Shown here: piece by piece, positions 1,133 through 21,638 of the stretch
Numbering within the stretch: position 1 is the first letter of the stretch
How the letters are laid out: each line of letters opens with the position of its first letter
Assembly (NCBI GenBank): GCA_903909605.1
Contig: CAIVWH010000015.1
Span: 1-64,000, forward strand
DNA from: an uncultured Micrococcales bacterium
Lineage (GTDB): Bacteria > Actinomycetota > Actinomycetes > Actinomycetales > Microbacteriaceae
Direction: 5' to 3'
DNA length: 64,000 nt
Position numbers and translations under genes: made by a program
The notes under the pieces: model-generated
The model's database searches: none
What the model was told of the DNA's origin: nothing
The model's input: the letters and a program-made list of their open reading frames with translations, nothing else

Positions 1133-2323
1133 CTAGGACTGGGCTGGGCTTTTGGCGTAGACCGGAATATATCGATACATGAGCCAAACCGAACCGAGGC
1201 CGAGCACACCGAAGCTGGCCATGCCGGCCGCCAAGCCGATGGTGGCAGCCATCAACGAGAGAACAGGTGGGGCGGCGGCTACACCGGTGTCGATCAAAAG
1301 GCGATAGCCGGCCAGGAACTCCGAGCGCGCATCCGCGGGGGCGAGGTCGCTTCCGAGGGTGAGCACGAGGCCTGAGCCAAGCCCGTTCGCCAGAGACATC
1401 AGAACTGCAAGAACCAGGAACATCGGTTCATTTGTTGCGAGGAACAGCCCGATGTGAGTGAGGCCCAGGCCGATCATGGTCGGCACTGCCGAGGCGCGCC
1501 TGCCAAAGCGATCCATGATTTGACCTGAGGTGTAGAACAGCGCGAAATCGATGATGGCCGCGATGCCGATATAGAAGGTTGACTTGTCTGGCGACAATCC
1601 AATGACGATTGCCCAAAGCGGAAGGCCAATCTGCCTTGTCGTTCGAAGAACGCCGATCATCATCGCACCGACACCAACCGTTGCCAGTTTCTTGCGCTCG
1701 CGATAAGCGACGTGGAAGGTGTGGCGCATAGGCGTCGGGCTCGGTTCGAACACCCGGTCATCCTTGGTTGTAACCAACGAGAGTGCAGTAGCCACCCAAA
1801 CGACGAGGCTGAAAACGAACACGGCCGGCACGCCAAAAAGCGCGATGATGCCCGCGCTCACCAGTGGGCCAATGAATGCGCCTGCGCGGAATGTTCCTCC
1901 GAGCAGCGAAAGAGCCCGCGCACGGTGACTGTGCGGAACGTGCTCGGTCATGTAAGCGTGTCGCGCAAGGTAGAAGACCGCGCTTGATGAACCGACTATG
2001 GTCACCGCAAGGCCGAGCACCCAAATGTTTTGAACCAAAAAGCCAAGCAGCACCGCGACGAACGCCGAAACAGAGGCCCAGGCCATCGCCTTGCGCTCTC
2101 CGATGCTGGCTACAAGTCGGGCTGCGGGCAAGTCGGCAAGCAGCAGGCCGAACATCACCATTCCGGCGATGAATCCTGCGAGGGGAATGCTAGCCCCGAG
2201 TCGCTCAGCGCTCGCCGGAATTACAGGAATCAGCGCGTACTCGCCAATCGAATAGAGCGTTGAAGGAATGAATACCGAACCGACCAGGCTGGCAATCCTG
2301 AATGGAGGCGTTGGGTTCGACAC
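1133..2323 (-). CDS. MFS transporter
   Basis: Membrane carrier of 396 residues with about 12 hydrophobic segments, the usual length for a major facilitator. A degraded motif A (around ASIGERK) follows the second helix, and a clear second-half copy (MDRFGRR) lies near residue 268. The substrate cannot be read from sequence. The amylase gene starts 11 bases downstream on the same strand, so a sugar is one guess. It is divergent from prfB with only about 32 bases between starts, so the two promoters must overlap or lie inside the coding regions. Confidence 0.85.
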
Positions 2324-2355
2324 CCGTCAATTATCGCCCGCCTAAACTTGGAGCG

Positions 2356-3459
2356 ATGGCCGACCTCGATCTTTCTCAAGAACTCAAAGAATTGAGTTCG
2401 ACGTTGGCATCGATTGTTCAGGTAATCGACCTGCCAAAGGTCACCGCCGAAGTCGAGCAGTTGAAGGTTGCCGCTGGCGAGCCAAATCTGTGGGATGACC
2501 AGGCCAACGCCCAAAAGGTGACCAGCGCGCTGTCGCAAAAGCAGGCCCTGCTGACAAAAATCGTCGAGACTCAGGTGCGGTTGGCCGACCTGCCAGTGCT
2601 CATCGAAATGGCGAATGCCGAAAACGACGAAAATTCCCGCAAGGATGCCCGTGCCGAGCTTTCGTCGCTGACCGAGGAGATCTCCAAACTTGAAGTCCAG
2701 ACCCTGCTCAACGGCGAGTTCGACGCGCGCGGGGCGGTGGTGACCATCCGATCTGGGGCTGGCGGCGACGACGCCACCGACTTCGCCGAGATGCTTCTTC
2801 GCATGTATCTGCGTTGGGCTGAAAAGCACAAATACTCGGTTCAGGTGCTCGACACCTCTTATGCAGAAGGCGCGGGCATTAAGTCGGCGACCTTCGAGGT
2901 CGATGCCCCGTTTGCCTTTGGCACCCTAAGCGTCGAGGGCGGCACGCATCGCCTGGTGCGCATGAGCCCATTCAACGCAGCCGGAAAACGGCAGACTTCC
3001 TTCGCGGCAGTAGAGGTCGTCCCGCTGATCGAGCAAACCGATTCCATCGAGATTCCGGAATCCGAGGTGCGCGTTGACGTGTTTCGCTCATCCGGGCCTG
3101 GCGGTCAGTCGGTGAACACCACGGATTCAGCAGTCCGCCTAACCCACATTCCGACCGGCATCGTGGTGTCTTGCCAGAACGAGAAGAGCCAGTTGCAAAA
3201 CAAGGTGGCAGCGATGCGCGTTCTGCAGTCGCGACTGCTCGAAATTCGCCGCCGCGAAGAAGAAGCCAAGAAGAAACAGATTGCCGGCGATGTGAAGGCA
3301 TCCTGGGGAGAGCAGATGCGCAGCTATGTGCTAGCCCCATATCAAATGGTGAAAGACCTGCGCACCGACTTTGAGGTGAACAACCCGAGTGCGGTGTTTG
3401 ACGGCGACCTTGACGGTTTCATTGCCGCTGGAATTCGTTGGCGCAAGTTAGCCTTGTAG
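2356..3459 (+). CDS. prfB: Peptide chain release factor 2
   Basis: Class I release factor, recognising UGA and UAA and triggering peptidyl-tRNA hydrolysis in the ribosome. It has 367 residues. The RF2 tripeptide SPF is at residues 204-206 and the catalytic GGQ at 249-251, within [12 protein letters not shown] chose ATG 2356 (MADLDLS) because the upstream in-frame residues would lie in the promoter region and do not look like RF2. The gene reads through in one frame, so the autoregulatory +1 frameshift known from many bacteria is absent. It heads the group prfB-ftsE-ftsX-smpB-ssrA, with ftsE starting 2 bases after the stop. Confidence 0.96.
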
Positions 3460-3461
3460 CA

Positions 3462-4139
3462 ATGATCCGCATCGAAAACGTCAGCAAGAACTACCGAGGC
3501 TCGAACCGCCCGGCGCTTGCCGACGTTTCGCTCGAAATAGAAAAAGGCGACTTTGTCTTTCTCGTTGGAGCATCTGGTTCTGGCAAATCCTCGCTGCTGC
3601 GTCTGATTCTGCGCGAAGAGATTCCTTCCAGCGGTGCCGTTCACGTGCTTGGCGAAAACCTGGTCGGCATTCCAAGCCGCCGCATCCCGTTCTTTCGCCG
3701 CAAGCTCGGTGTGGTTTTTCAGGACTTCCGCCTGCTGCCGAACAAGACCGTTGGACAAAACGTTGCCTTCAGTATGGAGGTAATCGGACAATCGGCAGGC
3801 CTGATTGAGGCCGCGGTTCCCGAGGTGCTTCGCCTTGTCGGCCTGGATGGCAAGGCCGACCGACTGCCATCTGAACTCTCCGGTGGCGAGCAACAGCGAG
3901 TTGCCCTGGCCCGAGCCATCGTGAATAAGCCGGCGATTTTGCTTGCCGATGAACCAACCGGAAATCTTGACCCGAAGACCAGCGAAGAAATCATGGCGCT
4001 GCTCGATTCGATCAACCAGACCGGCACCACAGTTGTTATGGCCACCCACGACAGCGGCATCGTGAATCGCTACCGCAAGCGCGTGATTGAACTGCGCGAG
4101 GGTCAAATCGTGCGCGACGAGAAGTCGGCGGGTTACTGA
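3462..4139 (+). CDS. ftsE: Cell division ATP-binding protein FtsE
   Basis: ATPase subunit of the FtsEX complex, which sits at the inner face of the membrane and controls peptidoglycan hydrolases at the division site. It has 225 residues. Visible motifs are Walker A GASGSGKSSL near residue 36, the ABC signature ELSGGEQQRVALARA, and Walker B ILLADEPTGNLD. ATG 3462 (MIRIENV) is the family-typical start. Its stop overlaps the ftsX start (TGATG), which suggests translational coupling and equal supply of the two subunits. Confidence 0.96.
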   Translation: MIRIENVSKNYRGSNRPALADVSLEIEKGDFVFLVGASGSGKSSLLRLILREEIPSSGAVHVLGENLVGIPSRRIPFFRRKLGVVFQDFRLLPNKTVGQNVAFSMEVIGQSAGLIEAAVPEVLRLVGLDGKADRLPSELSGGEQQRVALARAIVNKPAILLADEPTGNLDPKTSEEIMALLDSINQTGTTVVMATHDSGIVNRYRKRVIELREGQIVRDEKSAGY

Positions 4140-5047
4140 TGCGTTTTGTTTGGAGCGAGGTTCGGCAGGGCATCCGGCGCAACTTGTCGATGGTGATTTC
4201 GGTCATCCTGGTGACCTTTATTTCGCTGACCTTTGTTGGCACCGCTGGCCTGCTTCAGATGCAAATTGGCCAGATGAAGAACTACTGGTACGACAAGGCT
4301 GAGGTTGCGATTTATCTGTGCAGCAATGTCTCGCCTGCCGACGTTTGCCCGCAGGGCGAGGCCTCGGCTGATCTCAAGACCGCGGTCGAAAATCAGCTGA
4401 AATCGCCGACACTTGCACCGTTCATTCAGCGCTACTATTTCGAAGATCATGCCGCGGCTTATCAAAAGTTTCAGCAGGAATTCGCCGGCAACTCGGTTGC
4501 TAAGTATGTGACCGCAGAGCAGCTGAACGAAACCTACTGGGTCAAGCTCAAAGACCCAAGCCAGAGCGCAATCATCACCGAGAGCTTCACCGGGTTCGCG
4601 GGTGTCGAAGAGGTGCGCGACCAGCGAAGTTACCTCGATCAAATCTTTGGGATCTTGAACGCGGCTTCGATTGCGGCAATCTCGGTGGCAGCACTGATGC
4701 TCGCCTCGGCCGCGCTGTTGATCTCAACCACCATTCGCCTAAGTGCCTTCGCGCGTCGCCGCGAACTGGGCATCATGCGTCTGGTTGGTGCGAGCAACTT
4801 CTACATTCAGTTGCCGTTCATCCTTGAAGGTGTTTTCGCGGCCATCATCGGAAGCCTGCTGGCAAGTGGGGCGGTTGTCGGGATTGTTCAGTTCTTCGTT
4901 CAGGGCTATCTGGCTCAGCAGTTGCCGTTCACCAATTTTGTCGATCTAGGCTCGGCCCTGCTCCTCGTTCCAGCGCTGATTGGTTCCGGTGTGATTCTCG
5001 CTGCTGCCGCCAGCGGCCTGGCAATTCGTCGCTATCTGCGAATATAG
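4139..5047 (+). CDS. ftsX: Cell division protein FtsX
   Basis: Membrane partner of FtsE, of 302 residues. There is one N-terminal transmembrane helix (about 20-42), a large outside loop of about 125 residues with two cysteines near residues 61 and 69, then three more helices, which is the FtsX topology. The RRRELGIMRLVGAS stretch before the last pair of helices is typical of the FtsX/MacB permease fold. The outside loop is the part expected to contact a NlpC/P60 or M23 hydrolase. None lies next to it, though an M23-like protein is encoded at 55980-56513. Confidence 0.95.
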   Translation: MRFVWSEVRQGIRRNLSMVISVILVTFISLTFVGTAGLLQMQIGQMKNYWYDKAEVAIYLCSNVSPADVCPQGEASADLKTAVENQLKSPTLAPFIQRYYFEDHAAAYQKFQQEFAGNSVAKYVTAEQLNETYWVKLKDPSQSAIITESFTGFAGVEEVRDQRSYLDQIFGILNAASIAAISVAALMLASAALLISTTIRLSAFARRRELGIMRLVGASNFYIQLPFILEGVFAAIIGSLLASGAVVGIVQFFVQGYLAQQLPFTNFVDLGSALLLVPALIGSGVILAAAASGLAIRRYLRI

Positions 5048-5053
5048 GTTCTT

Positions 5054-5527
5054 ATGCCTAGGGAACGCGGAGAAAAGGTTGTCGCGAGCAACCGCAAAGC
5101 GCGCCACGACTATCACATTGAAGACACCTATGAGTGCGGCATCGTGCTCATGGGAACCGAAGTGAAGTCGTTGCGCGCCGGTCGAGCATCCCTGGTCGAC
5201 GGATTCGCCTCTGTCGAGAACGGCGAAGTTTGGCTCGAGAACGTGCACATTCCTGAGTACACCCAGGGCACCTGGAACAACCATTCGACCCGCCGCCGCC
5301 GAAAGCTGCTGCTGAACCGCGTCGAGATCGCCAAGCTCGCCGGCAAGGTCAAAGAGTCTGGCTACACACTGATTCCGCTTTCGCTCTATTTCAAGGATGG
5401 CTACGCCAAGGTCGAGCTAGCCCTCGCGAAAGGCAAGCGCGAATACGACAAGCGCCAAACCCTCAAAGAGCAGCAGGATAAGCGCGAGGCAGACCGCGCG
5501 ATGTCGACCAAGGGCAAAGACTGGTAA
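5054..5527 (+). CDS. smpB: SsrA-binding protein SmpB
   Basis: Small RNA-binding protein that brings tmRNA to stalled ribosomes. It has 157 residues and starts 6 bases after ftsX. Family features are the early KARHDY and [16 protein letters not shown] stretches and a basic C-terminal tail ([14 protein letters not shown]) that becomes helical in the mRNA channel. Its RNA partner, ssrA, lies 100 bases downstream on the same strand. Confidence 0.97.
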
Positions 5528-5628: not shown

Positions 5629-5998
5629 GGGGATGATCGGTTTCGACAACGCAATTTGTGATTGGAAGAAGCGGGTCGAGAATGTAGCGTCAACTCGTTA
5701 ATGTCCGCTGCAAACTATAGGTGCCAAATCAAACAGCACCGACTTCGCCCTAGCCGCATAGGTTAGCCCCGAAGTCCGTCAGACCGTTTGTGATTTCGTA
5801 ACGGAGCCTGGCGTCATCTAGAAATCTTGCTGAGTGTTTATGTCTTAGGGGCACTCGGGACTTTAACTAAGGCTGGGCCTGTCGGATATGTCGCTTTACG
5901 CTAGCGCCGGGGCCGAGTAGAACCTCAGTAAAGCTACACCCGTAGAAGTGCCAAGATCATTGCGATGGACGGGGGTTCAATTCCCCCCATCTCCACCA
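5629..5998 (+). ncRNA. ssrA: Transfer-messenger RNA (tmRNA)
   Basis: Ribosome-rescue RNA of about 370 nt with a tRNA-like end and an internal tag frame. The 5' GGGGATG pairs with CATCTCC just before the 3' ACCA (5995-5998), with one G-U pair. A T-arm with loop TTCAATT closed by a G5/C5 stem precedes it. The tag frame begins at GCC 5723, reads AKSNSTDFALAA and stops at TAG 5759, matching the actinobacterial tag pattern that ends in ALAA for ClpXP-type proteolysis. The ends were set from the acceptor stem, and the 3' end is encoded as CCA. Confidence 0.97.
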
Positions 5999-13386: not shown

Positions 13387-13806
13387 ATGCTAAGTCTCAT
13401 CATCGCCCTGGCGGGCATCGCCCTCGGAATCTTCGTTGCCATCGCCTTCTTCAAGGCTGGCCGCTTCAAGCTCACCGGAACCAAAGAGGCATTCGCCGCT
13501 GCACAGTGGGGCTGGGCTGAGAAGATCTCGCTCGGCACCATCCGTTTGATCGGTCTGCTCGAAGTACTCGGCGCAATCGGCGCTGTTGTCGCACCAATCG
13601 TTGCGCTCATCCCAGGTTTCGAGTGGGCTCAGGGCTTCGGTGTTGCAGCAACCGGCGGCCTCGCACTGACCATGGTTGGCGCAATCATCGTTCACCAGTC
13701 GCGCGGCGAGTCAAAGTACACCTTGAAGATGAACCTTGGCCTGTTGGCACCGGCAGTTATCGCAGCAGTGCTCGATGCACTGGTTGCTCTGCCAATCAAG
13801 TTCTAA
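13387..13806 (+). CDS. DoxX-like family membrane protein
   Basis: Membrane protein of 139 residues with four hydrophobic helices, typical of the DoxX-like family (PF13564). Conserved-looking elements are FFKAGRFKLTGTKEAF after the first helix and GLLEVLGAIGAV at the second. The biochemical role of the family is unclear; some DoxX proteins take part in thiol/quinone redox chemistry. GAAAGG lies 8 bases before ATG 13387. Its stop overlaps the stop of the convergent S-component gene by 3 bases. Confidence 0.8.
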   Translation: MLSLIIALAGIALGIFVAIAFFKAGRFKLTGTKEAFAAAQWGWAEKISLGTIRLIGLLEVLGAIGAVVAPIVALIPGFEWAQGFGVAATGGLALTMVGAIIVHQSRGESKYTLKMNLGLLAPAVIAAVLDALVALPIKF

Positions 13807-14573
13807 AGCTTCTTTTCAAATCCGGCCCTGTTCGCCGCACGTCTTAGTGTCGGCAGCAGGGCCGGTGCAGTTAAGGCAAGCAGCACGCAGGTTGTAGCGG
13901 CGCGCCCCGTGTCCCAGAGCAACCCTCCGGTGAACAACTCAAATTTCAGAAAAGTCTGCAAGTTTTCTAGGATGCCCGCGCCGGCAACATAACTCAGGCT
14001 CGAGTGATCGCCGGCTAAAAACGGCCAGTTCCACAACGTCATCAGCGCTCCGTAGAAGTATGCGCCCACGATTGCGAAGACAACCAGGATAGCAATCTGG
14101 CTCCATTTGTTTCTGGTGCGCGGAAGTAACCCAGCACCAAGACCGACCAAACCTGCTGCCATCATCTGGAACGGCAACCACGGGCCGACTCCCGCGCCGA
14201 TGAGTGCAGAAACCAAAAGCGACAGAGAGCCAATTAGGTAACCGAACGCCGAGCGAAATACGTAGCCCGCAATGATGATCAGAAAAAATACGGTTTCGAT
14301 TCCGGCCATACCGGCGCCAAGCAAACGCACCAAAGAGTTCACGGCAGTCAGCACCGCCAGGGTCGCGAGTTTCTTGCTGTCGAGTGCTCCCGCCGAAAGT
14401 TCAACCAGCCCGAAGATCACGAGAGCGGGCATCAAGGCCATCAGTAGGGTCTGGGCAACGGCATCCTGGCTCGGGTTCACAATCACCAGTGGCCAGGCGA
14501 AGGCAAGCAGCGATGCGCCGGCCATGAGGGTCAGTGCCAGCTTGGCTGCTAATGACTTATTGCTGGTAATCAT
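13803..14573 (-). CDS. ECF transporter S component, probably for cobalamin
   Basis: Substrate-binding membrane subunit of an energy-coupling-factor transporter: 256 residues with about eight hydrophobic segments and little charge between them. The cobalamin assignment is inferred. It is the last gene of an operon that begins with a B12 riboswitch and two intrinsic-factor-like proteins, and it resembles CbrT-type S components in size. Its ATG overlaps the stop of the double ATPase gene (ATGA), so it is translationally coupled to its partners. Confidence 0.78.
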   Translation of the reverse strand: MITSNKSLAAKLALTLMAGASLLAFAWPLVIVNPSQDAVAQTLLMALMPALVIFGLVELSAGALDSKKLATLAVLTAVNSLVRLLGAGMAGIETVFFLIIIAGYVFRSAFGYLIGSLSLLVSALIGAGVGPWLPFQMMAAGLVGLGAGLLPRTRNKWSQIAILVVFAIVGAYFYGALMTLWNWPFLAGDHSSLSYVAGAGILENLQTFLKFELFTGGLLWDTGRAATTCVLLALTAPALLPTLRRAANRAGFEKKL

Positions 14574-15817
14574 CGGCTCACCTGCTCAAGACCGGTTTCT
14601 GTCAGGCGTAGCTCTCGGTCGATAAGACCAGCCAGGAATGCCCGATTGTGACTCACCACAACAACGGCGGTGCCTGCGGCCGCGAGGTTGGCGATTGCCT
14701 GGCGCAACAGGTTGAGGGTTGCGTGTTCGAGGCCCCGGTTTGGCTCATCGAGAAGCAAGAGGTCGGCCTCGCGGCTCAGCTGAATGGCAAGCACGAGAGC
14801 TAGTTGCTGGCCCGCACTCAGGTCTCGCGGATGCGCATCCGGTTGAAGATCGAAACCGAGCGCTCGCAATCGCGCAAAGGTAGTGCCGGGGTCTGTGTCA
14901 CGAAGTTTGTCTGCGTCTGTAAGTTCGAGTGCAACAGTCTCGAAAATCAAAAGGTCTGCCGGCTCCTGTGGCACCATCACGCACCGGATGCCGGAAGAAG
15001 CCCCGTCATAGATTGCATCTAGCAATCTGCTCTTACCGATTGCATTTGGCCCAGTTAGGCCAACAATCTCACCGGCGCGCATAGTGAATCGATCAAGGTC
15101 GTAGTTCTCAACTTGATCGGGCCCGCGAGTTTTTGCAACCTGATTGAAGCTGCGCTCTGGTATCGAGGTCGAGCCAAGGTTTATCACTCGGTCAAACTTC
15201 AGGTTGCCTTGCTCTGAGTCGTGCGTGGTCAACACAACACAAATTTTCTTTTCATCGGCCAGCCGGCTAAGCGTCGAGTTGATTCGTTTCGAATTGATTT
15301 CATCGAGGCGCGAAGTTGGTTCGTCGAGCAGCACATAATCGGCTCCGCTTGCAAGTGCGGCTGCAATCGCGACAAGCTGTTGCTCTCCACCTGAGAGTTC
15401 TTGCACCCGTCGGTCAAGCAGGTCGGCAATCTCCAATTGGCTGGCGACATCGAGGATGCGGGCGCTGACTGAATTCGCAGCCAGCCCCAATTGGGTCGGG
15501 CCAAAGGCAATCTCGTCGCGCACGGTTTCTGCCACGAAGCCGAGGGTTGGCTGCTGGCTCACGAAGCTGATTCGAGCCGCTGTCTCGTGCGGCTTGAGAC
15601 CGGATATGCCAAGCGAATCAAGCACGCGCCTGCCGCTAACCTCTGCGTTCCAAAACTCTGGAACAAGACCACAAATGGCGCGCAGCAGGGTGGTTTTTCC
15701 AGAGCCCACCGGCCCTGCGACAGCCACCAATTCACCGGGAACAAAATCGACATTCAACTCACTCCACAGGGGTCGACCGGTCGAATCAGTGCAGGTGAAG
15801 TCTCGAAGCTGAAGCAT
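14570..15817 (-). CDS. ECF transporter ATPase, fused A-A'
   Basis: 415-residue protein with two ABC domains in one chain, giving the two motor halves of an ECF transporter. Domain 1 has Walker A GPVGSGKTTLLRA, signature ELSGGEQQLVAIAAAL and Walker B VLLDEPTSRLD. Domain 2 has GPNAIGKSRLLDA, signature DLSAGQQLALVLAIQL and LLLLDEPNRGLE. The second domain's P-loop and signature are slightly degenerate, common in fused EcfA proteins. Start and stop overlap the neighbouring T and S genes by 1 and 3 bases, as expected for a complex made in fixed ratio. Confidence 0.9.
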   Translation of the reverse strand: MLQLRDFTCTDSTGRPLWSELNVDFVPGELVAVAGPVGSGKTTLLRAICGLVPEFWNAEVSGRRVLDSLGISGLKPHETAARISFVSQQPTLGFVAETVRDEIAFGPTQLGLAANSVSARILDVASQLEIADLLDRRVQELSGGEQQLVAIAAALASGADYVLLDEPTSRLDEINSKRINSTLSRLADEKKICVVLTTHDSEQGNLKFDRVINLGSTSIPERSFNQVAKTRGPDQVENYDLDRFTMRAGEIVGLTGPNAIGKSRLLDAIYDGASSGIRCVMVPQEPADLLIFETVALELTDADKLRDTDPGTTFARLRALGFDLQPDAHPRDLSAGQQLALVLAIQLSREADLLLLDEPNRGLEHATLNLLRQAIANLAAAGTAVVVVSHNRAFLAGLIDRELRLTETGLEQVSR

Positions 15818-16650
15818 TATCCAGCCACTCGTCTGCGCAGGGCTAGCGAGCCGGCGCCCAGGCCAAGCCCAATTGCCACCAGGGCGATTGCGAACGGTGG
15901 CTGCCCAAAGAGCAATTGGCTGATGCCAAGCGCATCTACGAGCATGCCGGCAGCTGCGAGGAATCGAGCCAGGCGCAGCCGAGCAGGCGACAGTTTTCCC
16001 TGAGAGCCGAACCCGCGAACATCCATGCTGGCGGCCAAGTGAATTGAGCGTTCGAAGGCATCCTCGAAAACTGGAACGACTATCGCGCTAAAGCCAAGGC
16101 CTCTTGCGTGGCCGCGCAGTCGCGACGAGCGCCTGATTCGAGCGATGCTCTCGGTGAGTTGCGGAATGAAATTCAGGGCAAGCACCACGCTCGTTGCAAT
16201 TTCAAAAAGTGCGCCAGGTGCCTTACGCAGTAGCCTCCTCGAATCAACAAGCAGGTTGGCGGCAGTGACTACCGCAACGATTGCCGCAAGGCGCGAGCCA
16301 TCGAAGAAGGCCTTAGCTAACTCGCTAGCCGAAATCGGGCCGAGCAGGTCAAGATTGCCAAGGCCGAAATTCACACGGATGTCTGGCAACTGAAAAAGCG
16401 CATCGGGCTCGGACCCACCCGAGAACACCACGCGGAACAAGACACGAATCAGAATGATGCCGATGGTTAGCGAAAGAATTAGGCGAACTGGAACAGCAGA
16501 CTTGCGAACTCTGCTGACCAGCCAAACCAAAAGCACCGAACCGATCAGCACCGTCAAGTTGAGCCAGAGTGAGGTGGAAAGCGAGATCTCAAAGACTGTG
16601 CCGATGGCCACCAGCCAAACGGCACCAGGAAAGCGCGCGACTACTTGCAT
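15817..16650 (-). CDS. ECF transporter T component (EcfT)
   Basis: Transmembrane scaffold of an ECF transporter, 277 residues, with N-terminal helices, a cytoplasmic coupling region and further helices. The coupling region carries the two Arg-Gly motifs that contact the ATPases: RLRGHARGLGFS and MDVRGFGSQ. It overlaps the preceding secreted-protein gene by 10 bases and the ATPase gene by 1 base (TAATG). Confidence 0.9.
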   Translation of the reverse strand: MQVVARFPGAVWLVAIGTVFEISLSTSLWLNLTVLIGSVLLVWLVSRVRKSAVPVRLILSLTIGIILIRVLFRVVFSGGSEPDALFQLPDIRVNFGLGNLDLLGPISASELAKAFFDGSRLAAIVAVVTAANLLVDSRRLLRKAPGALFEIATSVVLALNFIPQLTESIARIRRSSRLRGHARGLGFSAIVVPVFEDAFERSIHLAASMDVRGFGSQGKLSPARLRLARFLAAAGMLVDALGISQLLFGQPPFAIALVAIGLGLGAGSLALRRRVAG

Positions 16651-17162
16651 GAGTAAGGTTTCGGCTCTTGTCTCGGCGGATTAGTCGCTGGGGCTTCATC
16701 GGGCAGCAGGAAGCGCCAGCCATCCCAGTTGCCGCACGCCGGCTTGCGTATGCCAGCGCCCTGCAGGCTGTAGTGCCAGATCGGGCTGGCAGCGGTTGCA
16801 TAGAAATAGGCCCAGTGGCCGGTCTTGGCGCCCGGGGTGTTCAGGCAGGTGTCGCTCGACGGGGCCGGAACCTGCTCAATTCGGCAGACGAAACCTGTCG
16901 GGTATTGACTCGTGCCTTCAACGCGAAAGCCCGTCGCCGCAAATAGCTGCCAGCCGGTTCCGCTGAAGTTGCTTGCGCAACGAAGGCTACTGCGCGGAGT
17001 TGCACCCGTGCCGAAGTCCACGAGCAGGGTGGTGCTCTGCACAGAGCAGTCCTTGCTCGAGTAGAAGCCCAGGTCGACGTTTGGCACGCGCGAGATGAGT
17101 CCGCCGATGGCAACGAGGGCGAGAAGTGCAATCAGCACGGTGCGCAATCTGATTCGAGACAC
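16641..17162 (-). CDS. Secreted transcobalamin beta-domain-like protein (DUF4430-like)
   Basis: 173 residues with one N-terminal hydrophobic helix (about 8-24) serving as signal or anchor. The rest is predicted outside and Cys-rich. The stretch TGHWAYFYATAASPIWHYSL, then GAGIRKPACGNWDGWRFLLP, matches the aromatic pattern of DUF4430/transcobalamin C-terminal-like domains (PF14478, from memory): a W-a-Y strand, a W-x-Y-S strand and a terminal G-W-R-F strand. It starts with GTG one base after the stop of the toroid protein. I infer it forms the second half of a two-part B12 binder with that protein and hands cobalamin to the ECF transporter. The family match is by eye. Confidence 0.68.
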   Translation of the reverse strand: MSRIRLRTVLIALLALVAIGGLISRVPNVDLGFYSSKDCSVQSTTLLVDFGTGATPRSSLRCASNFSGTGWQLFAATGFRVEGTSQYPTGFVCRIEQVPAPSSDTCLNTPGAKTGHWAYFYATAASPIWHYSLQGAGIRKPACGNWDGWRFLLPDEAPATNPPRQEPKPYSCK

Positions 17163-17163
17163 G

Positions 17164-18144
17164 TTACTTCTTTATTAGGTCGAGGTAACTCATCGAACGC
17201 AAAGCCAGGTAGCCCTGCACGGTCGCGTAGGTGTCGCCACTGGTTGACCAAGGTGTCGTTATTCCGCCATCCGGTGCAATGCGCGAAGCGAGGTACTTGG
17301 CATAAGCAATCGTGGTAACCGAATAACTTGACAGTCCCATTCCGGCATATGCAGTTCCGTTCACATCGATGTCGCCCCACGATTCAAAGTGATCTGCGAT
17401 GACATTTTTCTTTAACCACTTCACCGCAGCAATCACTGCCGCTTTGCGCGCTGCGAGTTGAGCGGAGGTGCCAACCACTTTCACGGATGCGTATGCCATC
17501 AGTGCGATGCCCGTCGCATCCGGGGCGCTGGTCGCGGTGTCTGCGGTTAGGTCGGTGCCGTATCCTCCGTCGGCTCGCGCCAAGCTCGCAAGCCTTGTAG
17601 CGTTTGCGCTTGCCAAAGTTATTTCGCCATTTGCGACCAGTCCGAGAGTGGCCCACGAATAGTTAAAGGTATTCCCTGCATCGCGAGCGATCACGCCGTT
17701 CTTGGCAACAGCATTTTTAAGCGATGCAAGCGTCGATTTGCACGCGGGGGTGGCGGTTAGCGCAAAGACCTTGCAGGCGAATAGGTGCTGGCCGGCACGC
17801 CCAACCAGCAGTGCCTTATCTGGTGCATATAAAAAGCCAACCGGATTCGATGCCGTGCCGAGATTGGTCAACGAGGTCAGGTTGAATGCAATCGCCTTGG
17901 CCAGGCTCGAGCTGGTGTAACCAGCGCCCTTCAGCTGAAGCAGCCCCTCCACGCTGAAGCCCCAATCCGGCTTGCCAGGCGTGAAGCCCTCAATGTATTT
18001 GCCGTCGACGAACTTGCTCGCGATGAACGCAGCGGTGCTCGAAAAAGTGTTGGCCGCCTGAACCGGGGTTGTGGGGGCGCCAAGAGTCAGCATGGCCACA
18101 GCCAGTGCAGCGACAAACTTGCGGGTAACGAGAGGCTTTCGCAT
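17164..18144 (-). CDS. Secreted alpha/alpha-toroid protein, intrinsic-factor alpha-domain-like
   Basis: 326 residues. A signal peptide with cleavage after TPVQA (near residue 30) is followed by repeated helical units of the prenyltransferase/terpene-cyclase toroid type. These units include DWGFSVEGLLQLKGAGY, NYSWATLGLVANGE, RADGGYGTDL...DATGIALMAYASV, SSYSVTTIAYAKYLAS and YATVQGYLALRSMSY. The alternating G-G-Y/F and A-L repeats resemble the cobalamin-binding domain of intrinsic factor and transcobalamin. It is the first gene after the B12 riboswitch and heads the ECF operon, so extracellular cobalamin capture is the best reading. There is no lipobox, so retention at the surface would need a partner. 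Confidence 0.78.
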   Translation of the reverse strand: MRKPLVTRKFVAALAVAMLTLGAPTTPVQAANTFSSTAAFIASKFVDGKYIEGFTPGKPDWGFSVEGLLQLKGAGYTSSSLAKAIAFNLTSLTNLGTASNPVGFLYAPDKALLVGRAGQHLFACKVFALTATPACKSTLASLKNAVAKNGVIARDAGNTFNYSWATLGLVANGEITLASANATRLASLARADGGYGTDLTADTATSAPDATGIALMAYASVKVVGTSAQLAARKAAVIAAVKWLKKNVIADHFESWGDIDVNGTAYAGMGLSSYSVTTIAYAKYLASRIAPDGGITTPWSTSGDTYATVQGYLALRSMSYLDLIKK

Positions 18145-18415
18145 TTCGCCCTTCTAACTTGGCAGGGCGAAGCGAAAGGCGGGCGGCAGGCGCATCCAAG
18201 GATGCCTGACCACCAGTGCCGTTGCGCTCCAACCGCAGACCTAGACGGATAAAGGAGTTACTGCTTCGAGCGGGCACTCCGACTTATCGTCAAGACGACT
18301 CACGGTTGCTGGTCAGCGCGGGATTCACACCCGACTTTCCCCGAACAAAGCATCAACTGCAGCAAGCTGCGTTTCAAGACTAACCGAGTGGCTTTGAAGT
18401 GAAAATGCGCGCCAG
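18145..18415 (-). promoter_or_regulatory. Cobalamin riboswitch with ribosome-site-masking hairpin
   Basis: On the minus strand this 5' leader contains the cobalamin aptamer core: GGGGAAAGTCGGGTGTGAAT then CCCGCGCTGACCAGCAACCGTGA (about 18302-18346), and a B12-box-like AAGTCGGAGTGCCCGC (about 18272-18287). Nearest the gene, TTCGCCCT (complement of 18164-18171) pairs perfectly with AGGGCGAA (complement of 18145-18152), which contains the ribosome-binding site and touches the start codon. This suggests translational OFF control when B12 is bound. The aptamer's 5' limit is approximate. It lies between the CPBP protease gene and the capture/ECF operon it should control. Confidence 0.9.
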
Positions 18416-19778: not shown

Positions 19779-21638
19779 ATGAAAGCAACTCGCATTGTGC
19801 GTTCGGTTGCCGTTGCAGCTGTTGCCGGTTTGACCATTGCAGGCCTCTCGGCCGTAGCAGTGGCTCCAGCTGGTGCTGCCGCACGTTCAACCGTCGTGAT
19901 GATGGAGACCACCGCTATGACTTCGCTCAACAGCGGCACTCCAGACACCAACCTCGTCACTAACACTGACGTTGGCTACCTCACCGGCAACGGATTCACC
20001 TACTACGACAACAAGCCAAACCTGATCGCTAACACCGCATTCGGTACTTTGGCTGTTGTAAAGAACACCGCAACTGACTTCGAGGTCAAGTACACCGTTC
20101 GCAAGGGCCAGGTCTGGTCAGACGGCACCCCAATCGATGGCGTTGACCTTCTGCTCTCGCACATTCTTACGAGCGGCGCATACTCGAAGGCTGCGGGTCT
20201 TGGCGACCCAAGCACCGGCACCCCTGCATTCGACAGCATCGGTTACGGCGGTTCGTATGACTCGCACATCGTTGGCACTCCAACCTTGAGCGCCGACCAC
20301 ATGTCGGTAACCCTGAAGTACGACTCAGTTCAGCCTGACTACAAGATCCAGGGTCCTGGCCCATCGCCAGTACACGCACTGGAGCTTCTTGCTGCTGGCA
20401 AGACCAAGCTCGGCACTGCTGCAGAGAACTTGGCTGCTAAGGCACAGTTCCTCAAGGACTTCACCACGAAGAACACTGCTGCACTGAAGAAGATGGGTGC
20501 CGTATGGTCAACCGCTTACAACATCAAGACTGTTGACTCGTCGACCAACCCATTGCTTCTCGTTGGCAACGGCGCATTCATCGTGCAGTCGGCAGTAGCT
20601 GACCAGTCGGTTACCTTGGTTCGCAACCCGAAGTACACCTCGGGCCCAGCAATGGCCAAGACCAACCCAATCAACAAGGTCATCTTCTCGTTCATCGCTG
20701 ACGGCTCGCCTGCATTCCAGGCACTGCGCAACGGCGACATCGACATCTACGATGGCCAGCCAGACACCGCAGGTCTTGCACAGCTCCAGGCAATCAAGTC
20801 GGCAACCGTTTACGGTGGCGTCTCGTCAACCTACGAGCACGTAGACCTTCGCGTTGGCGCTGCCCAGGGTGACACCACTGCATACAACGGTCCATTCGCT
20901 GGCAACAGCCAGAAGGCTAAGGACTTGCGTCACGCCTTCTTGCTCGCACTGCCACGCGACGCGATCTTGGCTGCAGAAGTAACCCCGTTCAACCCAAAGG
21001 GTGTTGTGATGAACTCGCAGTTCACCCTCCCAGGTCAGACCGGTTACGACACCATTACCAAGAACTCGGGTAACGCAGAGTACGTTGCTGGAACCCAGGC
21101 CGACCGCACCGCTGCGGCTTTGGCTCTCGTCAAGAAGTACTACCCATCGGCATCGGCTAGCAACCAGGTTGTTAACATCAGCTTCCTGTTCAAGGGCAGC
21201 CAGCGTCGTATCGACGAGAACAAGCTGATTGCTGCAGAAGAGGCCAAGGCTGGTTTCGCAGTCTCGACCACTCCTAACAGCAAGTGGAGCACCCTGCTCA
21301 GTGACGTAAGTTACGACGCAGCGATGTTCGCATGGGCTCCTTCGAGCGTCAGCCAGACCGGTACCAACGCAAACTTCCAGACCGATGGTGGCAACAACCA
21401 CTACGGTTGGGGAAATGCTGCGCTGGACACCGTGCTGCACTCACTCGAGTCGTACCTGACTCCTTCACAGATCACTGCAAAGTACCTCGCAGCTGAGAAG
21501 ATCGTCCACGACAACTACTACACCCTGCCTCTGTACCAGTGGCCAGCAATTGCTGCGGCAAGCACTTCCTTGAAGGGCATCTCGTTTGCACCACTGTCTC
21601 CAAACGTTGTTTGGAACTACTGGCAGTGGCACTTCTAA
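19779..21638 (+). CDS. ABC transporter substrate-binding protein, family 5
   Basis: Solute-binding protein for oligopeptides, nickel or similar ligands: 619 residues, of usual family size. A signal peptide ends near APAGAAA (about residue 34). There is no lipobox Cys, unlike the second binding protein of this locus, so it is predicted to be released or held only by its transporter. Family features include VRKGQVWSDGTPIDGVDLLL near residue 108, the RNGDIDIYDGQ segment, and a C-terminal LPLYQWPAIAA. Codons are strongly biased to the set used by ribosomal protein genes here, suggesting high expression. A structured leader precedes it and a strong terminator follows. Confidence 0.92.
   Translation: MKATRIVRSVAVAAVAGLTIAGLSAVAVAPAGAAARSTVVMMETTAMTSLNSGTPDTNLVTNTDVGYLTGNGFTYYDNKPNLIANTAFGTLAVVKNTATDFEVKYTVRKGQVWSDGTPIDGVDLLLSHILTSGAYSKAAGLGDPSTGTPAFDSIGYGGSYDSHIVGTPTLSADHMSVTLKYDSVQPDYKIQGPGPSPVHALELLAAGKTKLGTAAENLAAKAQFLKDFTTKNTAALKKMGAVWSTAYNIKTVDSSTNPLLLVGNGAFIVQSAVADQSVTLVRNPKYTSGPAMAKTNPINKVIFSFIADGSPAFQALRNGDIDIYDGQPDTAGLAQLQAIKSATVYGGVSSTYEHVDLRVGAAQGDTTAYNGPFAGNSQKAKDLRHAFLLALPRDAILAAEVTPFNPKGVVMNSQFTLPGQTGYDTITKNSGNAEYVAGTQADRTAAALALVKKYYPSASASNQVVNISFLFKGSQRRIDENKLIAAEEAKAGFAVSTTPNSKWSTLLSDVSYDAAMFAWAPSSVSQTGTNANFQTDGGNNHYGWGNAALDTVLHSLESYLTPSQITAKYLAAEKIVHDNYYTLPLYQWPAIAAASTSLKGISFAPLSPNVVWNYWQWHF

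What the first reader, a model, noticed from the sequence alone, without database searches (positions are those of the whole stretch)
13803..18415. Two-part intrinsic-factor-like B12 capture proteins encoded with an ECF transporter under a cobalamin riboswitch
Seen: in order on the minus strand are a cobalamin aptamer, a secreted alpha/alpha-toroid protein, a secreted protein with a DUF4430/transcobalamin-beta-like pattern, EcfT, a fused EcfA-A' and an S component. The genes are separated by 1 base or overlap by 1 to 10 bases. Known: human intrinsic factor and transcobalamin are one chain with an alpha/alpha-barrel and a beta domain that clamp B12 between them, and ECF transporters import vitamins. 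Inference: here the two domains are separate proteins that close around cobalamin outside the cell and pass it to the ECF S component, a scavenging route for a cell that may not make B12. Neither capture protein has a lipobox. The beta-like protein may be held by an uncleaved N-terminal helix and so tether the complex.
Basis: partly seen in the sequence, partly recalled or inferred. Interest (0 to 1): 0.86.

Follow-up and report, generated by a model that had tools for sequence, protein, structure and literature searches.

The report
Two-part bacterial vitamin B12 clamp operon
A tiny freshwater bacterium that seems unable to make vitamin B12 carries a B12-controlled operon with a membrane importer and two exported proteins, one of which is predicted to fold like the B12-gripping half of the human B12 carrier proteins, so a capture strategy known from animals can be tested in bacteria.

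Summary

In the genus (Rhodoluna by record titles) a model of this riboswitch hits 51 of 67 genomes, once each. S-component presence tracks B12-dependent MetH or NrdJ (45 of 47 versus 9 of 20). The own genome has MetH; no CbiC or CobS was found. The unit recurs across Actinomycetes, sometimes with beta and toroid in one gene.

Most likely this is a B12 scavenging system. Binding, clamping and hand-over are inferred. The general idea is in print as a prediction (Burroughs et al. 2007, PMC1796856): a new variant of a known kind.

The parts
18223..18365 (-). Cobalamin (AdoCbl-type) riboswitch aptamer in front of the operon
   Evidence: RF01482 40 bits, E 5.7e-6, below gathering score 50; own covariance model R1 hits 18235-18367 at 103.9 bits (the window is among the sequences R1 was built from)
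17164..18144 (-). Exported alpha/alpha-toroid protein ('alpha'), 326 aa; Sec-type signal peptide about residues 1-30 (my reading)
   Evidence: ORF; 41-member profile matches squalene-hopene cyclase E 6.8e-9 in PDB; genus members match SQHop_cyclase, Prenyltrans and TED families, and PF01122 in 2 of 41; distant operon relatives match NCBIfam SCO2321_fam in 28 of 30 at E 0.001
16641..17162 (-). Transcobalamin-beta-like protein ('beta'), 173 aa, GTG start
17091..17147 (-). N-terminal membrane helix of beta (residues 6-24), probably an uncleaved anchor
   Evidence: helix 6-24 in the model; hydrophobic stretch kept in alignment A2; relative L049 has a lipobox there
16701..17045 (-). Beta-grasp (transcobalamin C-terminal type) domain, residues 40-154
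   Evidence: aligned range 40/41-154/155 in most of the 15 best rows
15817..16650 (-). EcfT transmembrane coupling protein
   Evidence: PF02361 E 6.4e-10, 39.5 bits over cut-off 25
14570..15817 (-). Fused double ATPase EcfA-A'
   Evidence: ABC_tran E 1.1e-37, two stretches; two Walker A and two signature-like motifs
13803..14573 (-). Substrate-specific S component (putative B12 S component)
   Evidence: 29-member genus alignment, mean column identity 67%; TIGR04518 ECF S family E 0.15 here and 5.2e-6 in distant relative L102, both below cut-off
14385..14573 (-). N-terminal extension of about 63 residues of S, missing in the genus variant that has no toroid gene in its operon
   Evidence: S matches begin at model position 64 in L152, L153, L155 and L156

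Best explanation
This is a vitamin B12 (cobamide) scavenging operon switched by a cobalamin riboswitch. Shown: gene order, riboswitch core, ECF parts, predicted transcobalamin-type fold of beta, toroid homology of alpha, presence of B12-dependent MetH, and that two B12-synthesis marker families were searched for and not found. Inferred: alpha is exported and beta sits on the outer face of the membrane by its N-terminal helix; the toroid cavity and the beta-grasp domain together clamp one B12 molecule, as the two domains of transcobalamin do in one chain; the loaded pair docks on or near the S protein, which takes B12, and EcfT plus EcfA-A' drive import with ATP. High internal coenzyme then shuts the operon through the riboswitch.
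For: Riboswitch: 51 of 67 genus genomes, one hit each; 16 of 20 distant loci on the operon strand; 30 of 40 named distant loci on the operon strand; these two tallies are my reading of the tables. Beta fold. Beta to DUF4430. Toroid. Co-occurrence of S with MetH or NrdJ. MetH present, CbiC and CobS not found in the own genome. Beta and toroid in one reading frame elsewhere, once under its own riboswitch. Surface location: lipobox-like motifs in 14 of 41 toroids; beta with 6 cysteines in 30 of 35 and 4 in 5, one pair missing together. Prior prediction of the same kind of system: PMC1796856 (abstract, passages, part 1 of 2 of section 7, and section 10 read).
Against: No binding data. The toroid is not specifically transcobalamin-like by sequence and its structure was not predicted. 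S resembles no solved S component, and its faint NCBIfam similarity is to a folate-type family. Within the genus, toroid presence does not track MetH (p = 1) and tracks 'MetH or NrdJ' only weakly (p = 0.077; 0.17 at 90% completeness or more). Some operons have beta and ECF but no toroid (L152, L154, L155, L156), and three toroid genes stand without beta, ECF or riboswitch (L057, L067, L069), so the toroid is not always needed or not always for this job. Four genomes have a B12 enzyme but neither S nor riboswitch was found (G009, G015, G044, G061). Co-occurrence counts species, not independent events.
Confidence: 0.76

Rival explanations
1. An ordinary ECF B12 importer in which S alone binds B12; alpha and beta are accessory surface proteins, for instance beta alone presents B12 and the toroid does something else (remodelling the ligand, or an enzyme).
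For: Beta plus ECF without a toroid gene in the operon occurs in the genus (L152, L154, L155, L156); orphan toroids persist in genomes where MetH, NrdJ over cut-off, S and riboswitch were not found (G041, G062); the toroid's nearest solved relatives are cyclases.
Against: Toroid and beta genes stand side by side in 37 of 40 genus loci and share one reading frame in some distant species; beta has the fold of the transcobalamin half that closes on B12 over a toroid.
Confidence: 0.35
2. The substrate is another corrinoid or cobalt: cobinamide, a non-B12 cobamide, or Co2+.
For: EcfT matches the cobalt-type family CbiQ above cut-off and EcfA matches cbiO below its cut-off; the characterised ECF-CbrT also takes up cobinamide (PMC5997447, passages read).
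Against: No CobS was found in the own genome, so cobinamide could not be completed by that route, and no CbiC, so cobalt could not feed a corrin pathway. MetH needs a complete cobamide. The beta fold is that of proteins solved with cobalamin.
Confidence: 0.15
3. The capture proteins are released to hoard B12 as a shared or competitive siderophore-like trap rather than for cell-bound delivery.
For: The window's alpha has a cleavable-looking signal peptide and no lipobox (sequence).
Against: Beta carries a conserved N-terminal membrane helix, and relatives have lipoprotein-like or sortase-type anchors.
Confidence: 0.1

Closest known systems
Animal transcobalamin / intrinsic factor / haptocorrin
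   Different: Here two separate genes, the toroid is not PF01122 by sequence, and delivery would be to an ECF transporter instead of a receptor and endocytosis
Bacterial transcobalamin-like SLBB proteins in CbiO/CbiQ operons (Burroughs et al. 2007, PMC1796856)
   Same: Secreted beta-grasp domain, toroid domain fused N- or C-terminally in some species, CbiO-like ATPase and CbiQ-like protein, hosts usually lacking key B12-synthesis enzymes, B12 scavenging proposed
   Different: In the passages read they report the clade from low-GC Gram-positives, planctomycetes and, less often, euryarchaea; 'riboswitch' occurs nowhere in the main text. Here: Actinomycetota, a split pair, a cobalamin riboswitch in front, an S component, and a beta family that Pfam's DUF4430 model misses
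NCBIfam SCO2321 (NF053823) and SCO2322 (NF040672) families
   Same: 28 of 30 distant toroids match SCO2321 at E 0.001; the L120 beta matches SCO2322 above cut-off (153.6 vs 85 bits)
   Different: The window's toroid gives no match and its beta scores 22.9 against 85; the outputs seen state no function for these families
ECF-CbrT of Lactobacillus delbrueckii (PMC5997447)
   Same: ECF transporter for cobalamin with EcfT, EcfA, EcfA' and an S component
   Different: No capture proteins are named in the passages read; the A3 S profile matches no solved chain at E up to 10; here the S gene sits in one operon with its own ECF module

Membership tests
Transcobalamin-type beta domain (fold) | Beta-grasp fold with the transcobalamin C-terminal arrangement | tested here: met
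PF14478 DUF4430 | Pfam gathering score reached by the protein itself | tested here: not met
   No match in the window beta and PF14478 not in the list for 35 genus betas at E up to 1; related only by wide profile: hhalign 94.6%, E 7e-8
PF01122 Cobalamin_bind | Pfam gathering score reached by the toroid | tested here: not met
   Window toroid no match at E up to 1; 2 of 41 genus members, best E 0.0021; not in the list for 30 distant ones at E 0.01
Transcobalamin/intrinsic factor (whole protein) | Toroid and beta domain in one chain | tested here: not met
   Separate genes in the window; one reading frame, mostly in beta-toroid order, in a few relatives
Transcobalamin/intrinsic factor (whole protein) | Binds cobalamin between the two domains | not testable with these tools
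   No complex prediction or assay available
ECF transporter | EcfT plus two ABC ATPase domains | tested here: met
   PF02361 and two ABC_tran stretches
ECF transporter | Recognised S component | tested here: inconclusive
   No Pfam match; weak TIGR04518 below cut-off; no solved relative at E up to 10
Cobalamin riboswitch (RF01482/RF00174) | Rfam gathering score | tested here: not met
   40 vs 50 bits in the window; relatives L120 and L121 exceed it with 54.6 and 61.1 bits
Cobalamin riboswitch (RF01482/RF00174) | Conserved core kept upstream of homologous operons | tested here: met
   37 of 40 loci above the best of 50 shuffles; R1 in 51 of 67 genomes
SLBB B12-scavenging operons (PMC1796856) | Secreted transcobalamin-like domain with CbiO/CbiQ genes | tested here: met
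SLBB B12-scavenging operons (PMC1796856) | Host lacks key B12-synthesis enzymes | tested here: met
   CbiC and CobS not found in the 98% complete genome; the same searches ring in 7 and 10 of 14 control genomes; only these two families were tested
CbrT | Sequence kinship of S to CbrT | tested here: inconclusive
   No PDB sequence match of A3 at E up to 10

The most novel reading that the evidence does not exclude
An ECF transporter, whose S component is normally the only substrate binder, is here fed by a two-piece extracellular B12 clamp that assembles only around its ligand. The same two modules exist split, fused, duplicated and apparently permuted across Actinomycetota, which would make this a bacterial lineage of, and an assembly model for, the animal intrinsic-factor/transcobalamin proteins.
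Probability: 0.5. Interest if true: 0.82.

Novelty: new variant of a known kind. Interest (0 to 1): 0.64.

Why it matters
How streamlined freshwater bacteria and many other Actinomycetes capture trace B12 is, to my knowledge, poorly known. The finding ties families without a stated function (SCO2321, SCO2322) to B12 uptake, extends a 2007 prediction to another phylum with riboswitch, co-occurrence and fold evidence, and points to a genus, Rhodoluna, in which genome editing of R. lacicola has been reported (PMC11577799, start of abstract and passages seen), so it can be tested.
Full report
What is there. The five ORFs and their spacing are as described. The aptamer is at 18365..18223 on the minus strand, an AdoCbl-type match of 40 bits against a gathering score of 50; no cobalamin family is reported at gathering thresholds. 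EcfT and the double ATPase are clear. The S protein and the two exported proteins have no significant Pfam family by themselves.

The genus. The window lies in a 1.34 Mb genome, 98% complete. A search with the toroid found it in 50 of 149 related genomes, all 50 in the same genus of 67 genomes. Named records of the closest loci are titled Rhodoluna, Microbacteriaceae or Micrococcales, with two labelled Auritidibacter; contig lengths of three Rhodoluna-titled records equal those of genus genomes G029, G047 and G053. I fetched 40 loci. Beta lies beside the toroid in 37 of 40 and ECF genes follow unless the contig ends; the three others, L057, L067 and L069, have the toroid without beta or the ECF set. 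The aptamer core is found upstream of 37 of 40, and the three that lack it are the same three. A covariance model from the window and 31 of these loci hits 51 of 67 genomes, once each; one of the 51, G004, is a partial hit of 28.6 bits. By comparing coordinates across, 50 of the 51 lie on the same contig as operon genes; in G026 the hit and the toroid fragment are on different contigs. Sequences used to build the model match it by construction.

B12 need. The B12-binding domain PF02310, by ORF length mostly MetH, exceeds its cut-off in 40 of 67 genomes, NrdJ in 38 of 67, and the S profile matches 47 of 67. Of S-bearing genomes 45 of 47 have one of the two enzymes; of the others 9 of 20 (p 7.4e-6). 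Among the 25 genomes at 90% completeness or more it is 19 of 19 against 2 of 6 (p 0.0012), and for the riboswitch 20 of 20 against 1 of 5 (p 0.0004). These are species counts, not independent events. Toroid presence alone does not follow MetH (p = 1). The own genome encodes a MetH (PF00809, PF02607, PF02310, PF02965) and no CbiC or CobS was found. MetE, BtuR and other importers were not tested.

The toroid. Its profile matches squalene-hopene cyclases (E 6.8e-9; wide profile 2.5e-37). PF01122 is hit by 2 of 41. Its structure job was never accepted.

Further afield. The beta profile matches 147 of 393 genomes of the class. I fetched 20 loci: an S match is present in 17, a toroid in 12, and an R1 riboswitch hit on the operon strand in 16 (L109, L116, L118 and L119 have none). 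An S-profile scan kept 80 of 126 loci. I analysed the 40 of these 80 whose titles or identity set them apart from the freshwater genus: toroid in 33, beta in 35 (the profiles were partly trained on these loci) and an R1 hit on the operon strand in 30 (in L201 it lies after S, in front of the toroid-beta pair). Of the 10 without, 8 have the first detected operon gene within about 1.2 kb of the end of the stretch; L218 and L231 do not. They include Streptomyces, Amycolatopsis, Actinomadura, Nocardioides, Lentzea, Aeromicrobium and Tessaracoccus. Beta and toroid share one reading frame in L108, L112, L113 and L229 (beta first) and perhaps L218 (toroid first; not checked further). L229 holds a 519-aa frame in Actinomadura hibisca with its own riboswitch at 77.8 bits. 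Pfam-recognised DUF4430 genes in other Actinomycetota also sit near ECF genes: an S match in 13 of 16 extended loci and a toroid in 7 of 16 (one of them, L274, is a Streptomyces-type operon already seen as L104); Rfam cobalamin riboswitches occur in 5 of 12 scanned.

Tethering. Fourteen of 41 toroids have lipobox-like motifs, and one beta clearly does (L049); the pattern also flagged L045, which I read as a chance match. Betas have six cysteines in 30 of 35 and four in 5, with C39 and C62 missing together, which suggests a disulfide and an extracellular domain.

Prior work. Burroughs et al. 2007 (PMC1796856; abstract, passages, part 1 of 2 of section 7, and section 10 read) already propose that secreted transcobalamin-like beta-grasp proteins, some fused to toroids and encoded with CbiO and CbiQ, scavenge B12 or its precursors in bacteria that usually lack key synthesis enzymes. 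This finding is therefore not a new kind. What is added here is the split pair, the riboswitch, the S component, the Actinomycetota distribution, the co-occurrence test and a confident fold for a family that Pfam's model misses.

Mechanism and limits. Capture by a two-part clamp and hand-over to S is the likeliest reading, but it is inference. The operons without a toroid (L152, L154, L155, L156), whose S lacks about 63 N-terminal residues where it was seen (L152, L153, L155, L156), hint that this extension might serve the toroid; this is untested.

Noticed in passing
L119 2105-5161 (-); L118 about 2169-5060 (-): A single 1018-aa ORF carries EcfT, two ATPase domains and an S match, directly after a beta gene and without an R1 riboswitch hit: an ECF transporter in one chain. 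L118 has T, A and S matches in one frame too.
   Followed up: partly
L152, L153, L154, L155, L156: Genus variant with a compact operon: beta, fused EcfT-EcfA, S shortened by about 63 N-terminal residues, no toroid gene. L153 and L154 are two contigs of one genome. Riboswitch in front in L152, L154, L155, and only a cut-off 3' piece at the contig end in L156.
   Followed up: partly
L057, L067, L069: Orphan toroid genes without beta, ECF set or riboswitch, in genomes where MetH, NrdJ over cut-off and S were not found (G019, G062, G041). The L069 protein has a lipobox-like motif.
   Followed up: partly
L120 5253-5834 (+): Beta of a 1.3 Mb genome of another family looks circularly permuted: profile positions 120-172 precede 44-114. 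It is a full SCO2322-family match, with an AdoCbl riboswitch just upstream.
   Followed up: partly
L112 4818-7703 (+): Long frame with beta and two toroid stretches, ending in an LASTG-type motif, a hydrophobic stretch and a basic tail: probably sortase-anchored, my reading.
   Followed up: no
L285 2948-5494 (+): An 848-aa beta-propeller-like protein (PQQ_2) lies between a cobalamin riboswitch and a DUF4430-ECF-toroid operon.
   Followed up: no
L205, L209, L210, L212, L213, L215, L216, L217, L219: Nine Amycolatopsis loci have a second toroid match on the opposite strand; eight of the nine, all but L205, also show a minus-strand riboswitch hit there.
   Followed up: no
window 5629-5998 (+): tmRNA gene, tag AKSNSTDFALAA.
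   Followed up: no
window 19779-21638 (+): Family 5 extracellular solute-binding protein near the operon (PF00496); relatives of it recur beside the operon in many genus loci.
   Followed up: no
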